From Nocardioides sp. HDW12B (lineage in GTDB: Bacteria > Actinomycetota > Actinomycetes > Propionibacteriales > Nocardioidaceae), in the NCBI RefSeq assembly GCF_011299595.1, contig NZ_CP049867.1, positions 2,170,001 through 2,234,000 on the forward strand: a stretch of DNA of 64,000 nt, given 5' to 3'. Shown one piece after another: positions 27,287-47,760 of the stretch. A program made the position numbers and the translations under genes. The notes beneath the pieces were generated by a model. That model worked only from the letters and a program-made list of their open reading frames with translations. It was not told the DNA's origin and ran no database searches. Numbering within the stretch: position 1 is the stretch's first letter; each line of letters opens with the position of its first letter.

Positions 27287-28927
27287 ATGCGAGCTGACAA
27301 CCGGGTAGCGACGAACCAGGCTCCGCCGCTGGTCGGCCACGACGTGGTGACCTCGGACACGGCCCTGGTCGAGGCGGTCACCCGGCACGCCTCCGACGCG
27401 GTCGTCGCGGACCTCTCCCCCCTCGGCCTGCTGGCCGGCAGCGAGGAGGGCCGCGAGCACGGGATGCTGGCCAACCGGCACCACCCCGAGCTGGTCTCGT
27501 TCGACCGGTTCGGCAACCGGGTCGACGAGGTGCGCTTCCACCCGTCCTGGCACTGGCTCATGGAGCGCGGCGTCGGCTTCGGCCTCGGGGCGACGCCCTG
27601 GACCTCCGACGACCAGCACGCCCACGTCCGCCGGGCCGCCGGCTTCATGGCGTGGTCGCACACCGAGCCCGGTCACGGCTGCCCGATCTCCATGACGTAC
27701 GCCGCCGTCCCCGCGCTGCGGACCGACGACGCGATCGCGAAGGAGTGGACGCCCAAGCTGGCGTCGACGACGTACGACTTCGGGGTGCGGCCGGTGGCCG
27801 ACAAGGCCGGCGTGTTGGCCGGCATGGGGATGACCGAGAAGCAGGGCGGCTCGGACGTGCGGGCCAACGTGACCGAGGCCGTCCCGACGGCGGTCGACGG
27901 GGAGTACGAGCTGTTCGGACACAAGTGGTTCACCTCCGCGCCGATGAACGACGTGTTCCTCGTGCTGGCGCAGGCGCCCGGCGGGCTGTCGTGCTTCCTG
28001 GTGCCGCGGGTCCTGCCGAGCGGCGAACGCAACCGGCTGGACGTCGTACGCCTCAAGGACAAGCTGGGCAACCGCTCCAACGCGTCGTCGGAGCTCGAGT
28101 TCCACGGCACCTGGGCCCAGCGGCTCGGCGACGAGGGGCGCGGCGTGCGGACCATCATCGAGATGGTGGCCGCCACCCGGCTCGACTGCGTGCTCGGCTC
28201 GGCGTCGCTGATGCGGCGCGCGGTGGCCGAGGCGTCGTGGCACGTCGCGCACCGCTCGGCCTTCGGGTCGGTGCTGGCCGACAAGCCGCTGATGCAGAAC
28301 GTCGTGGCCGACCTGGCCGTCGAGTCGGAGGCCGCGACCGTGCTGGCGATGAGGCTGGCCGCGGCCGTGGACCGGCGCTCGGACCCGCACGAGGCGGCGC
28401 TGCGGCGCGTCGCCCTGCCGCTGGCGAAGTTCTGGGTCTGCAAGCGGACGCCGATGATGACCGCCGAGGCGCTCGAGTGCCTGGGCGGCAACGGCTACGT
28501 CGAGGAGTCGGTGATGCCGCTGATCTACCGCGAGTCTCCGCTGAACTCCGTGTGGGAGGGCTCGGGCAACGTCAACGCCCTCGACGTGCTGCGGGCGCTG
28601 TCGCGCGAGCCCGAGACCGTGACGGCGTGGATCGAGGAGGTCGGTCTCGCGCAGGGCGCCGACGCCCGCCTCGACCGGGCGATCCAGTCGACGCTGGAGA
28701 CGCTGGCCGACACCGGGGCGGCCGAGGGCCAGGCCCGTCGGCTCGCCGGCCAGATGGCGGCCTGCCTGCAGGGCTCGCTGCTCGTCCGCTTCTCCCCGCC
28801 CGAGGTCGCCGACGCCTTCTGCGGCTCACGGCTCGGCGGCGAGTACGGCGGCACGCTCGGGACCCTCACCTCCTCCCCCGCCGACCTCCGCGCCATCGTC
28901 ACCCGCACCACCCCGACCCTCCCCTGA
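27287..28927 (+). CDS. AidB-like acyl-CoA dehydrogenase family protein
   Basis: The 546-residue flavoprotein has an extended N-terminal region, the FAD-binding MTEKQGGSDVRANVTEA and HKWFTSAPMNDVFLVLAQ blocks, an RLDCVLGSASLMRRAVAEA helix and a C-terminal CLGGNGYVEESVMPLIYRESPLNSVWEGSGNV motif. The last motif and the length match AidB, the flavin protein of the alkylation response that also binds DNA, rather than short-chain acyl-CoA dehydrogenases of about 380 residues. Acyl-CoA turnover is not proven for this group. The start at ATG 27287 lacks a ribosome site; TACGGT lies 7 nt upstream, so a leaderless mRNA is possible. Confidence 0.82.
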   Translation: MRADNRVATNQAPPLVGHDVVTSDTALVEAVTRHASDAVVADLSPLGLLAGSEEGREHGMLANRHHPELVSFDRFGNRVDEVRFHPSWHWLMERGVGFGLGATPWTSDDQHAHVRRAAGFMAWSHTEPGHGCPISMTYAAVPALRTDDAIAKEWTPKLASTTYDFGVRPVADKAGVLAGMGMTEKQGGSDVRANVTEAVPTAVDGEYELFGHKWFTSAPMNDVFLVLAQAPGGLSCFLVPRVLPSGERNRLDVVRLKDKLGNRSNASSELEFHGTWAQRLGDEGRGVRTIIEMVAATRLDCVLGSASLMRRAVAEASWHVAHRSAFGSVLADKPLMQNVVADLAVESEAATVLAMRLAAAVDRRSDPHEAALRRVALPLAKFWVCKRTPMMTAEALECLGGNGYVEESVMPLIYRESPLNSVWEGSGNVNALDVLRALSREPETVTAWIEEVGLAQGADARLDRAIQSTLETLADTGAAEGQARRLAGQMAACLQGSLLVRFSPPEVADAFCGSRLGGEYGGTLGTLTSSPADLRAIVTRTTPTLP

Positions 28928-28950
28928 CCCGCCCCGCACCACCCGGTCCC

Positions 28951-29022
28951 ATTTCGTGCACAAGTTCGTTCATGTGCCTTCTGAGACGCTCACCAGCCAC
29001 TTGATCGTTCTTGTGAACGATT
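28951..29022. repeat. Copy 1 of a dispersed hairpin repeat family
   Basis: The left arm (28954-28972) and right arm (29002-29020) pair at 15 of 19 positions around a 29-nt loop. The left arm contains CACAAGTTCGTTCA and the right arm CGTTCTTGTGAACGA, both identical to copy 2 at 30.1 kb. It lies 24 nt after the aidB-like stop and may end that transcript. Confidence 0.7.
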
Positions 29023-29108
29023 GTGGGGGGCGTGGAGTGAGGTCGGGGTTCTCCACAAGCTCGAGTCGCGAGCGACGTACGACGTCGGGCGCATGTCACG
29101 GTCGGGGC

Positions 29109-30017
29109 ATGTTCGAGCCCGACCGACCGTTCCGCCGTTCCGAGGCCACTGCCGACGGTGTGCGCCCAGCCGACCTGAGCCGTCACTTCACCCGTGTCCT
29201 GGGTGGGATCTACGTGTCGAGGCGCGTCCCTCGTTCGAAGGTGCTTCGCGTCCAGGCTGCACTGCTCGCCCACCCCGCCGTGGCGGTGGCCAGCCACGCC
29301 AGCGCCGCACGGCTCATGGGCGCTCCGAACGACCTGGGTCCGGACGAGCACGTGACCGTGCCTGAGGCGGGCCAACGACGCCAACGCCACGGCGTCCGTT
29401 GCCACGTGGCCACGTTGCGCGAGCAGGACGTCCACGCGCTCGAGGGACTGCGCGTGACCGTGCCCGAGCGGACGTTCCTCGACCTGGCCGGGATTCTGCC
29501 CCTGGTCGAGCTGGTGGTCCTGGGCGACTGGTTGGTCGCCACGGGCAGAGCCACCGCCGCGTCCCTGAGGGGTTACTGCGAGTCGACTCCCGCTCGCTAC
29601 GCGAAGCGCGCAGCGGAGGCCGCGGCCTACGTCCGGGCCGGCGTCGACTCACCGAACGAGTCACGCCTTCGCATGCTGCTCGTCCTGGCCGGCCTTCCGG
29701 AACCGACGGTGAACCTCGAGATCCGTGGGAAGGACGGACGGCTGCTGGTCAAGATCGACCTCGCGTACGAGCAGGTGCGTCTGGCAGTCGAGTACGACGG
29801 GCGCCAGCATCTCGAGTCGGCACCCCAGTGGGAGCGCGACGTCGTACGAGGTGACTTCTTCGCTGACCAGGCCTGGCGCCACCTCCGCGTCACCTCACGA
29901 GGTCTCTTCCGCGACCCCGAGTCGACCGTTCGTCGGGTCTGGACCGCGCTCCACGAGCTCGGGCACCCCGACCTCGCGGCGCCCTCCGAGGCGTGGCGCC
30001 GTCACTTCGCTGCCTGA
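29109..30017 (+). CDS. AbiEi-like/DUF559 (Vsr-fold) domain protein
   Basis: The 302-residue protein starts with a winged-helix-like region (GVRPADLSRHFTRVLGGIYVSRR). A central domain resembling AbiEi-type antitoxins follows (VASHASAARLMG and RVTVPERTFLDLAG). The C-terminal DUF559-type endonuclease-like fold has KIDLAYEQVRLAVEYDGRQHL, ERDVVRGDFFADQAWRHLRV and a late helix. The D-E-Y-D-G-x-x-H pattern is that of the Vsr-like nuclease fold. Such proteins are common in Nocardioides and relatives; their biological role is unknown. No AbiEii-like toxin is adjacent. The start at ATG 29109 follows the domain boundary. The gene is bracketed by two related hairpin repeats. Confidence 0.7.
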   Translation: MFEPDRPFRRSEATADGVRPADLSRHFTRVLGGIYVSRRVPRSKVLRVQAALLAHPAVAVASHASAARLMGAPNDLGPDEHVTVPEAGQRRQRHGVRCHVATLREQDVHALEGLRVTVPERTFLDLAGILPLVELVVLGDWLVATGRATAASLRGYCESTPARYAKRAAEAAAYVRAGVDSPNESRLRMLLVLAGLPEPTVNLEIRGKDGRLLVKIDLAYEQVRLAVEYDGRQHLESAPQWERDVVRGDFFADQAWRHLRVTSRGLFRDPESTVRRVWTALHELGHPDLAAPSEAWRRHFAA

Positions 30018-30080
30018 GCCACGCCCCTCGGGTTCACTCGTGCCACGTGTCCACCGACCAGCACCCGTCGAACCGCGTCA

Positions 30081-30153
30081 CATCCGCGCACAAGTTCGTT
30101 CACGGGGCGGGTGGGATGTTCTCACGTCACATGAACGTTCTTGTGAACGAAAC
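30081..30153. repeat. Copy 2 of the dispersed hairpin repeat family
   Basis: Left arm CACAAGTTCGTTCA (30089-30102) pairs with TGAACGTTCTTGTG (30132-30145) at 12 of 14 positions, with a TT/TT internal mismatch. The arm-to-arm spacing (43 nt) and loop length (29 nt) equal those of copy 1. It lies between convergent genes and can act as a two-way terminator. Confidence 0.7.
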
Positions 30154-30161
30154 TAGGGGCC

Positions 30162-31229
30162 TCAGGGGTGGACGAGGATCTTGACGTTCTCCTCCTTGTT
30201 GTCGATCAGCTCCCGGAAGCCGCCGTCGACGATGTCGTCGAGACCGATCCGGCCGGTGATGAACTGGAAGGGGTCGACCTTGCCGTCGGCGATCAGGGCG
30301 ATCGTCGCGGGGTGGTCGTTGGCGTAGGCCAGGCTGCCGAGCAGGTTGATCTCGCGGAAGACCAGGTCGTTCATCGCCACCGACGCCTCGTGGCCCCAGA
30401 TCGCGACGTTGACGCAGGTCCCGCCGGCCCGGGTGGCCTTGATCGCGGTCGCCAGCACCTGGTCGATCCCGGCGCACTCGAAGGACACGTCGGCCCCACG
30501 CCCGCGGGTGATCTCGTTGACGGCCTCCACGACGTCGACCTCGCGCGGGTCGAGCACGTGGTCGGCCCCGGCGGTGACCGCCTTCTCCTTGCGGACCCCG
30601 GCCGGCTCGACGACCACCACCTCCTCGACGCCGACGGCCTTCAGCGACGCCGTCGTCACCAGGCCGATCGGCCCGGCGCCGAAGACGAGCGCGCTGTGCG
30701 ACGGCTGCGCCCCCGACAGGCGTACGGCGTGGTAGGCCACGGCCAGCGGTTCGACCAGGGCCCCGACGTCGGTCCCGAGCTCGCCGAGCGGGTGGATCCA
30801 GCGGCGCTCGGCGACGACGTACTTCGAGAAGCCGCCGCCCCCGCCGGACAGCCCGACGAAGCCCAGCGTCGCGCAGACGTTGTACTTCCCCTGCTCGCAG
30901 GCGTCGCACCGCCCGCAGACGATGTAGGGCTCGACGACCACCCGGTCCCCCGGGCGTACGTCGTCCACGCCGTCGCCGGTCTCCACCACCACGCCGGCGA
31001 ACTCGTGGCCCAGCGTGATGGGGATCGACTCCCCGGTCAGCGGGTGCGGCGCCTCGGTGGTCGGCGCGAAGATCGGCCCCTCGAGGAACTCGTGAAGGTC
31101 GGTGCCGCAGATGCCGCACCACTCCACCTCGACCTTCACCGTCCCCGGGCGCGTGGCCGGCTCGGGGACCTCGTCGACCCGCACGTCACCGCGGCCGTGG
31201 AACCGTGCCGCCCGCATCAGGTCGCTCAT
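30162..31229 (-). CDS. Zinc-dependent 2,3-butanediol dehydrogenase-type alcohol dehydrogenase
   Basis: The 355-residue MDR protein has the catalytic zinc ligands in WCGICGTDLHE, GHEFAGVVVETG and the structural zinc loop CGRCDACEQGKYNVC, then the Rossmann motif VFGAGPIGLVTTASL. The EPLAVAYHAVRLSG block and overall pattern are those of (R,R)-butanediol dehydrogenases. It would oxidise a secondary alcohol or diol with NAD+. It overlaps the upstream monooxygenase stop as ATGA, so the two enzymes are made together and probably act in one pathway. The substrate is inferred only. Confidence 0.82.
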   Translation of the reverse strand: MSDLMRAARFHGRGDVRVDEVPEPATRPGTVKVEVEWCGICGTDLHEFLEGPIFAPTTEAPHPLTGESIPITLGHEFAGVVVETGDGVDDVRPGDRVVVEPYIVCGRCDACEQGKYNVCATLGFVGLSGGGGGFSKYVVAERRWIHPLGELGTDVGALVEPLAVAYHAVRLSGAQPSHSALVFGAGPIGLVTTASLKAVGVEEVVVVEPAGVRKEKAVTAGADHVLDPREVDVVEAVNEITRGRGADVSFECAGIDQVLATAIKATRAGGTCVNVAIWGHEASVAMNDLVFREINLLGSLAYANDHPATIALIADGKVDPFQFITGRIGLDDIVDGGFRELIDNKEENVKILVHP

Positions 31230-47684: not shown

Positions 47685-47760
47685 ATTTCGTTCAAAAGAA
47701 CGTTCAGAACCCCCTCCCAGTGTCTCGGGAGGGGGTTCTGAACGTTCTTTTGAACGAAAT
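47685..47760. repeat. Perfect 34-bp-stem hairpin, copy 3 of the dispersed repeat family, two-way terminator
   Basis: The left arm 47685-47718 and right arm 47727-47760 are perfect reverse complements with an 8-nt loop (AGTGTCTC). The outer 22 nt of each arm match the arms of copies 1 and 2 at 28.9 and 30.1 kb (about 18 to 20 of 22). The inner part adds GAACCCCCTCCC/GGGAGGGGGTTC. It lies between convergent lpdA and the next minus-strand gene, 11 nt and 8 nt from the two stops. Confidence 0.92.

What the first reader, a model, noticed from the sequence alone, without database searches (positions are those of the whole stretch)
28951..30153. DUF559/AbiEi-like gene bracketed by direct copies of the hairpin repeat
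The 302-residue Vsr-fold protein lies exactly between two copies of the repeat in the same orientation and with equal spacing. Palindromic repeats around a nuclease-fold gene recall REP-associated transposons, although this protein has no transposase motif. The unit could be a cassette that moves or is selectively kept by means of the repeats.
Basis: partly seen in the sequence, partly recalled or inferred. Interest (0 to 1): 0.55.

Follow-up and report, generated by a model that had tools for sequence, protein, structure and literature searches.

The report
Nuclease gene with private palindromic repeats
A gene for a probable DNA-cutting enzyme sits between two copies of a palindromic DNA repeat scattered through its own genome, and most sampled relatives of the gene in actinobacteria have the same layout with a different repeat, which looks like an undescribed kind of mobile genetic element.

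Summary
In detail: a 302-aa gene (29109-30017) lies between two ~66-bp palindromic elements (28955-29020, 30085-30150). It is not peculiar to this locus. Of 152 non-redundant homologues from actinobacteria, 123 have matching repeats on both sides, against 0 of 64, 0 of 43 and 1 of 31 control genes. Distant homologues have different repeats. The repeats are also scattered through the same genome: 24 sites plus one weak for this family, 0 in four congeners; 37 for a paralogue's family. The predicted structure (pLDDT 96) joins an AbiEi-type module to a Vsr/I-Bth0305I-type nuclease with conserved acidic residues. No Y1 (RAYT-type) transposase was found in nine genomes. In relatives, gene plus repeats behaves as a unit: a 1.19-kb cassette absent from two congeners, and opposite orientations with breakpoints at the repeats. 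Best reading: a REPtron-like element run by an unrelated AbiEi-Vsr nuclease that recognises its own repeats. The association is solid; that the nuclease moves the repeats is inferred. Mobility at this exact locus could not be tested.

The parts
28955..29020 (+). upstream copy of the palindromic repeat (family B)
   Evidence: CM hit 63.5 bits; DNA hairpin, z -2.89
29049..29058 (+). TTCTCCACAA, a one-mismatch form of the upstream motif TCCACAG/CTGTGGA found in 132 of 152 homologues (DnaA-box-like; that label is recalled)
29109..30017 (+). AbiEi-Vsr-like nuclease gene, 302 aa plus stop (Pfam MTES_1575 / DUF559)
29109..29636 (+). residues 1-176: AbiEi-antitoxin-like part (winged helix plus nucleotidyltransferase-like domain)
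   Evidence: 6y8q Z 11.6, rmsd 5.7, 170 aligned; 1zel Rv2827c Z 8.5; PADLOC AbiEi E 6.4e-19; Pfam AbiEi_1 under its cut-off
29643..29966 (+). residues 179-286: Vsr-fold nuclease with conserved E184, D217, E228
   Evidence: 3r3p I-Bth0305I Z 11.9; 1cw0 Vsr Z 10.0
30085..30150 (+). downstream copy of the palindromic repeat (family B)
   Evidence: CM hit 64.6 bits; z -2.11
47688..47757 (+). dispersed solo copy (family A, near-perfect 70-bp palindrome) between two convergent ORFs
   Evidence: z -12.9

Best explanation
The gene and its repeats form one bipartite element, analogous to a REPtron but built on an unrelated enzyme. The AbiEi-like N-terminal half recognises the cognate palindromic repeat. 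The Vsr-like C-terminal half nicks or cuts DNA at or beside it. Two repeats flanking the gene act as the ends of a cassette that can be inserted or inverted as a unit; single repeats are carried to other intergenic sites in trans, giving a repeat family private to the genome or to close relatives. Shown here: the bracketing, the gene-specific and dispersed repeats, the predicted fold and conserved acidic residues, unit behaviour of cassettes in relatives, and one clear presence/absence of a solo repeat. Inferred: that this protein binds and cuts its repeats and causes the movement, and by which chemistry (nick-primed copying, or excision and end-joining).
For: Bracketing: 30 of 40 homologues taken by rank vs 0 of 64 neighbouring genes, Mann-Whitney p 7.5e-14; 63 of 80 in a named set vs 0 of 43; 123 of 152 non-redundant overall; 1 of 31 intergenic-flanked controls at >=15 and 0 at >=18. 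Gene specificity: 38 of 11,003 pairs with N-terminal identity under 45% share a repeat at score >=18, against 21 of 22 above 70%; 18 of those 22 are syntenic, and 3 of the other 4 share. Dispersal: 24+1 sites in the window genome and 0 in 4 congeners; 37 places for the paralogue's repeat R43; in a 12-genome test the listed rows fall only in the source genome or a congener (capped list). Placement of 30 of the 37 R43 copies by a crude ORF caller: 29 intergenic (13 convergent, 12 tandem, 1 divergent, 3 unclassed), 1 inside a called ORF. Fold: pLDDT 96.1, AbiEi plus Vsr/homing-endonuclease; E184, D217, E228 in 85 of 85. Unit behaviour: a 1185-bp cassette in G069 with the flanks contiguous in G064 (6-bp gap) and 152 bases apart in G025; opposite cassette orientations in two genera with breakpoints at or near the repeats; a solo repeat in G034 absent at the matching spacer in G012. 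No Y1 transposase in 9 of 9 genomes. AbiEi and Rv2827c bind 23-bp inverted repeats beside their own genes and did not bind each other's (PMC7319586, passages).
Against: No binding, cutting or transposition data. 29 of 152 genes show no matching flanks at the threshold; L105, L118 and L124 do match under a looser search, but others, such as L034 in this genome (score 9), seem to lack them. Dispersal is not universal: G084, G098 and G041 gave 3-4 matches each, the listed ones at the gene, and the listed L039-type matches lie at its gene. Transposases other than Y1_Tnp were not searched for. Opposite orientations could come from host recombination between repeats or from independent insertions. 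No target-site duplication was identified. Of nine solo R95 sites queried, one gives a clean empty site, one is noisy and the rest do not (one of them not aligned). The window's own cassette could not be tested. N- and C-terminal divergence rise together, so the specificity domain is not established. Homologues of one family are not independent samples.
Confidence: 0.6

Rival explanations
1. Operator sites: the repeats are autoregulatory binding sites of an AbiEi-like repressor; downstream and dispersed copies are extra operators or a small regulon, and the nuclease domain serves something else such as defence or repair.
For: AbiEi and Rv2827c bind inverted repeats upstream of their own genes (PMC7319586, passages); the N-terminal fold matches and the upstream repeat ends a median of 108 bp before the start codon.
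Against: Autoregulation needs no downstream copy, yet that copy starts a median of 24 bp after the stop. Dispersed R43 copies sit mainly between convergent or in tandem genes, 1 divergent of 30. Gene plus both repeats is a cassette that is present or absent as a unit.
Confidence: 0.17
2. Passive hitch-hiking: the palindromes are neutral or terminator-like sequences multiplied by an unrelated activity, and the gene is kept, flipped or inserted by homologous recombination between copies.
For: Many copies lie next to 3' ends of genes and the elements form hairpins; recombination between inverted copies explains flips without any enzyme. Transposases other than Y1_Tnp were not searched for.
Against: Distant homologues have different repeats, and in the listed results repeats occur only in the genome that carries the gene or in congeners (capped lists). 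No Y1/RAYT transposase was found. No T-run terminator in the window region.
Confidence: 0.13
3. Chromosomal defence or addiction module: a nuclease that spares or tolerates the host's marked repeats, so that losing the repeats or the gene is punished.
For: AbiEi profiles in PADLOC match; a DUF559 Vsr-like protein of Caulobacter is needed for the DNA-damage response of cells lacking a cytosine methyltransferase (PMC12907096, passages).
Against: The genes beside it are an AidB-type acyl-CoA dehydrogenase and a zinc alcohol dehydrogenase, not an AbiEii-like toxin or methyltransferase. Copy number differs widely between families.
Confidence: 0.1

Closest known systems
REP / RAYT (REPtron) and REPIN systems
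   Same: Cognate enzyme gene flanked by palindromic repeats; repeats dispersed in intergenic DNA near 3' ends; a different repeat family beside each enzyme (PMC3733652 and PMC3116915, passages)
   Different: No Y1 transposase in 9 of 9 genomes; the enzyme is an AbiEi-Vsr fusion by predicted fold; repeats here are about 57-75 bp hairpins or short-unit arrays; several gene/repeat families in one genome
AbiEi antitoxin (type IV AbiE system), Rv2827c
   Same: Fold of residues 1-176 (6y8q Z 11.6, 1zel Z 8.5); AbiEi binds inverted repeats by its own gene
   Different: C-terminal Vsr-like nuclease; no AbiEii partner in the adjacent genes; repeats on both sides and scattered over the genome
Vsr endonuclease and the I-Bth0305I homing endonuclease
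   Same: Fold of residues 179-286 (3r3p Z 11.9, 1cw0 Z 10.0); acidic residues conserved (the PD-(D/E)XK reading of them is recalled)
   Different: Fused to an AbiEi-like module and sits between its own palindromes; adjacent genes are metabolic
MITEs and TIR-bounded insertion sequences
   Same: Solo inverted-repeat elements plus a gene-bearing cassette per family; cassette indel
   Different: Each end is a complete palindrome or array rather than half of a TIR pair; no transposase domain seen in the protein; no target-site duplication found. General description of MITEs is recalled

Membership tests
REPtron (RAYT plus REP) | enzyme is a Y1/HUH (IS200-like) tyrosine transposase | tested here: not met
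   PF01797 absent from 9 of 9 genomes, rings in 5 of 14 control genomes; this protein's model matches AbiEi plus Vsr
REPtron (RAYT plus REP) | gene flanked by its cognate palindromic repeats | tested here: met
   123 of 152 vs 1 of 31 intergenic-flanked controls; palindromic beyond shuffles in 80 of the 123
REPtron (RAYT plus REP) | repeats dispersed in extragenic space of the same genome | tested here: met
   some families gave few or no matches away from the gene
REPtron (RAYT plus REP) | GTAG or CGTC tag on the repeat | not tested
   repeat sequences differ from gene to gene; no tag analysis was run
AbiE toxin-antitoxin system | AbiEi-type fold of the antitoxin | tested here: met
   6y8q_A Z 11.6, rmsd 5.7, 170 aligned; PADLOC AbiEi E 6.4e-19; Pfam AbiEi_1 in only 5 of 50 members
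AbiE toxin-antitoxin system | adjacent AbiEii nucleotidyltransferase toxin gene | tested here: not met
   adjacent genes are AidB/acyl-CoA dehydrogenase and zinc ADH; neighbours of the homologues were not annotated
Vsr / DUF559 endonucleases | Vsr fold with conserved catalytic acidic residues | tested here: met
   E184, D217, E228 in 85 of 85; E184 and E228 invariant, D217 at least 90% in 50; Pfam MTES_1575 in 50 of 50 and DUF559 in 41 of 50
Vsr / DUF559 endonucleases | mismatch-specific nicking linked to a cytosine methyltransferase | not testable with these tools
   needs biochemistry; no methyltransferase in the adjacent genes
Insertion sequence / MITE | target-site duplication on insertion | tested here: inconclusive
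   the 1185-bp cassette has a 6-bp gap in the empty site of G064 and no evident duplication; only distant genomes available
Intrinsic terminators | GC-rich hairpin followed by a T run | tested here: not met
   0 found in 28900-30250, both strands, by a simple pattern scan

The most novel reading that the evidence does not exclude
A previously undescribed class of bacterial mobile element, widespread in actinobacteria, in which a single AbiEi-Vsr fusion nuclease recognises its own private palindromic repeat, spreads solo copies through intergenic DNA and moves or flips itself as a repeat-bounded cassette, with protein and repeat diverging together; in effect an independent invention of the REP/RAYT arrangement by a homing-endonuclease-like enzyme.
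Probability: 0.55. Interest if true: 0.92.

Novelty: categorically new. Interest (0 to 1): 0.85.

Why it matters
Relatives of this protein were found in all 90 genomes sampled from its family, 1 to 12 matches each, and Pfam lists DUF559 as of unknown function. A role in making and maintaining private palindromic repeats would explain them, add a second, unrelated enzyme class to the REP/RAYT problem, and offer many natural enzyme/target pairs for studying how DNA specificity changes. It makes the open question of how REP-like repeats spread testable with an enzyme that is not a transposase.

Tried and rejected
Single-sequence structure prediction was useless (pLDDT 32); only the alignment-based model was used. 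The first related-loci scan with the lone protein found no relative. The loose flank alignments also align coding with coding in some loci (for example L069, L076, L079, L088), so they are not counted; the stringent test replaced them. L041 (contig end) and L049 were not put through the stringent test; of 167 flank sets five were dropped before pairing (L037, L042, L256, L259, L264: in-frame stop or under 250 aa). The empty-site test of the window's own cassette failed: no relative among 38 gave the two neighbours side by side (10 candidates scored per genome); G008, the only one matching both, has them about 245 kb apart. Solo-repeat empty sites: nine R95 sites were queried. Six were aligned: L317 is clean, L311 noisy, L314 has other sequence in the spacer, and L312, L316, L318 are too diverged. 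Of the rest, L313 has other sequence between the flanks in G012, L315 matches on one flank only, and L310 was not aligned. The G034 cassette of L328 has its flanks 1.8 kb apart in G012 with other sequence between, so it is not an empty site. The L112 cassette: G041 keeps the left flank only, and G051 and G058 gave no joined site. That the N-terminal half alone sets repeat specificity is suggested by the L112/L113 chimera but not established. Rfam: one match, far below its family's cut-off and inside the gene. Terminator reading: not supported by pattern scan. NCBIfam: no family for the window protein. Literature: ten searches; judged by titles and starts of abstracts, no listed paper links DUF559/MTES_1575/Vsr-like proteins with dispersed palindromes; bioRxiv and most subscription papers are not held. 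I read passages of PMC12907096, PMC7319586, PMC3733652, PMC3116915 and PMC3710099 (MTES_1575 as a Vsr REase domain), none in full.

Full report
WHAT IS THERE. The window is bases 2170001-2234000 of a 4.19-Mb one-contig genome, G000, of a genus with five held genomes. The best-matching named homologues are mostly from Nocardioides and other Nocardioidaceae, at 48% identity and below. A 302-codon gene (29109-30017, +) lies between two palindromic elements (28955-29020 and 30085-30150). Its neighbours are an AidB-type acyl-CoA dehydrogenase and a zinc alcohol dehydrogenase. The elements share the arms CACAAGTTCGTTCA and CGTTCTTGTGAACGA and fold as hairpins. A covariance model of 17 copies finds 24 sites plus one weak match in this genome and none in the four congeners (150 candidates scored per genome); the hairpin is supported by compensatory changes. 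A 17-base arm pattern with up to one mismatch occurs in 1 of 294 family genomes, the window's own.

THE LAYOUT IS GENERAL. All 90 family genomes sampled hold homologues, 1 to 12 matches each. In 40 homologues chosen by rank alone, a stringent local alignment of the 300 bp upstream with the 300 bp downstream scores 15 or more in 30, against 0 of 64 neighbouring genes (Mann-Whitney p 7.5e-14) and 43 of 1560 cross-gene pairs. In 80 loci with organism names (the best 80 of 547 confirmed candidates; Nocardioides, Kribbella, Intrasporangium, Serinicoccus, Microbacterium, Rathayibacter, Rhodococcus and others) it does so in 63, against 0 of 43 neighbours. The sets overlap in part. 167 flank sets were made (47, 40 and 80); five were dropped, 162 were usable and 152 remained after removing proteins 97% or more identical. 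Of these 152, 123 pass and 105 reach 18. A stricter control, genes with at least 80 bp of intergenic DNA on both sides, gives 1 of 31 at 15 and 0 at 18. The upstream repeat ends a median of 108 bp before the start codon; the downstream one begins a median of 24 bp after the stop. In 80 of the 123 the upstream repeat region is palindromic beyond 20 shuffles; some of the others are short-unit arrays. The 29 that fail include three that match under a looser search (L105, L118, L124), a chimeric case (L112) and genes that seem to have no repeats, among them one paralogue in this genome (L034).

DISTANT GENES HAVE DIFFERENT REPEATS. Repeat sequences differ between genes, even between paralogues of one genome: of six homologues tested in G000, five pass (L029, L039, L043, L047, and L048 at the threshold, 15) and one does not, and the repeats of the first four do not resemble one another. 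Among 11,476 gene pairs, a shared repeat (score 18 or more) is seen in 38 of 11,003 pairs below 45% N-terminal identity and 21 of 22 above 70%. With syntenic pairs removed the figures are 3 of 4 above 70%, 7 of 39 at 60-70% and 0 of 21 at 55-60%. N- and C-terminal identities rise together, so these data do not say which half recognises the repeat. Two paralogues of genome G069 (L112, L113) share a nearly identical nuclease half and downstream repeat but differ more in the N-terminal half and in the upstream repeat, which hints at the N-terminal half.

THE REPEATS ARE DISPERSED. The repeat of the paralogue at 3479044 has 37 places in G000 by my count of the 49 rows; a query with it and four other repeats found no convincing match in the four congeners (two marginal matches, E about 0.02). 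Of 30 copies examined with a crude ORF caller, 29 are intergenic: 13 between convergent genes, 12 tandem, 1 divergent, 3 not classed; one lies inside a called ORF. In a test of eleven repeats against twelve genomes (at most 40 candidates scored per genome, listing cut), the listed matches fall only in the source genome or in a congener. The number of matches runs from 3-4 (G084, G098, G041; the listed ones at the gene) to 78 (G012, G034; both strands and more than one family counted). None of nine genomes has a Y1 (RAYT/IS200) transposase, while the same search rings in 5 of 14 control genomes. Other transposase families were not searched for.

THE PROTEIN. AlphaFold2 with 50 aligned sequences gives pLDDT 96.1 and pTM 0.92. 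Residues 1-176 match the AbiEi antitoxin (6y8q Z 11.6, rmsd 5.7, 170 aligned) and Rv2827c (1zel Z 8.5); residues 179-286 match the I-Bth0305I homing endonuclease (3r3p Z 11.9), a putative Neisseria endonuclease (3hrl Z 11.4) and Vsr (1cw0 Z 10.0). E184, D217 and E228 are present in 85 of 85 homologues aligned; in the 50-member alignment E184 and E228 are invariant and D217 is at 90% or more. That they are catalytic is recalled from the PD-(D/E)XK pattern. AbiEi and Rv2827c bind 23-bp inverted repeats beside their own genes and did not bind each other's (PMC7319586, passages), so an AbiEi-like half that recognises a gene-specific palindrome is a reasonable inference. It has not been tested.

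UNIT BEHAVIOUR. In G069 the L112 cassette (1185 bp: both repeats and the gene) is missing from the matching place in G064, where the flanks are joined with a 6-bp gap, and from G025, where 152 bases lie between them and the left edge is not exact. G041 keeps the left flank only, and G051 and G058 gave no joined site. With two empty sites and no occupied one seen among five congeners, insertion is the simpler reading. In G058 against G064 and G051, and in G039 against G020, the chromosomal flanks align in one orientation and the gene in the other, with breakpoints inside the repeats or within some 20-30 bp of them: the cassette has flipped, or was inserted independently in opposite orientations. 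A solo repeat in G034 is absent from the matching spacer in G012; this is the one clean case among nine sites queried. In G040 against G076 a 7.8-kb stretch, gene included, is 87% identical while the protein is only 54% identical. For the window's own cassette no relative searched keeps both neighbours together, so presence or absence could not be tested.

MECHANISM. Most likely the AbiEi-like half binds the cognate palindrome, the Vsr-like half nicks or cuts there, and repair or copying leaves repeats at new intergenic sites; when both flanking copies are engaged, the cassette moves or flips. Only the anatomy, the dispersal and the unit behaviour are shown. Host recombination between repeats could cause the flips, and operator function could explain the upstream copy alone. 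Neither explains the downstream copy, the gene-specific families and the cassette indel together.

COMPARISON. It works like a REPtron (PMC3733652, PMC3116915, passages) but is not one, because the defining transposase is absent. It is not an AbiE system, because no AbiEii gene is adjacent in the window. The nuclease half belongs to the Vsr/DUF559 group by fold and Pfam. Ten literature searches listed no paper that, by title and start of abstract, connects these proteins with dispersed repeats; the library lacks preprints and most subscription papers.

AN EXTRA REGULARITY. 132 of 152 genes carry CTGTGGA/TCCACAG within 150 bp upstream (shuffled mean 3.4, largest 9; downstream 2 of 152). The wider consensus, about GYYRTCCACAGG, resembles a DnaA box (recalled). 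The window gene has a one-mismatch version at 29052-29058. Its meaning is open.

Noticed in passing
upstream 150 bp of 152 homologues; window 29049-29058: A DnaA-box-like motif (about GYYRTCCACAGG) lies upstream of the start codon in 132 of 152 genes, but within 150 bp downstream in only 2 of 152.
   Followed up: partly
L026, about 1496-1564 (G000:C1:3857110-3857177): A family-A palindrome lies in frame inside an open protein frame of 251 codons (stop to stop), which suggests insertion into a coding gene.
   Followed up: partly
L161, 1863-1926 and 2836-2902 (G000 1164862 and 1165835): Two R43 copies bracket a two-gene unit that looks like a MerR-type regulator with a small heat-shock protein (read by eye); other copy pairs lie 1-3.5 kb apart.
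   Followed up: partly
L112 and L113 (genome G069): Paralogue chimera: nuclease half and downstream repeat nearly identical, N-terminal half and upstream repeat diverged; a natural domain-swap experiment.
   Followed up: partly
L094 and L100 (G040, G076): Same chromosomal site, 87% identical in DNA over 7.8 kb with the gene included, but the nuclease proteins only 54% identical: fast divergence or replacement.
   Followed up: no
repeats of L091, L092, L097, L101, L106, L113, L116, L117, L126: Many repeats share a core like CCnnGATTTGnnnnnTT with a variable part, as if related proteins keep a common half-site (seen by eye).
   Followed up: no
L328 against L364 (G034, G012): Where G034 has a repeat-bounded cassette, G012 has about 1.8 kb of other sequence between the same flanks, perhaps a different insertion.
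   Followed up: no
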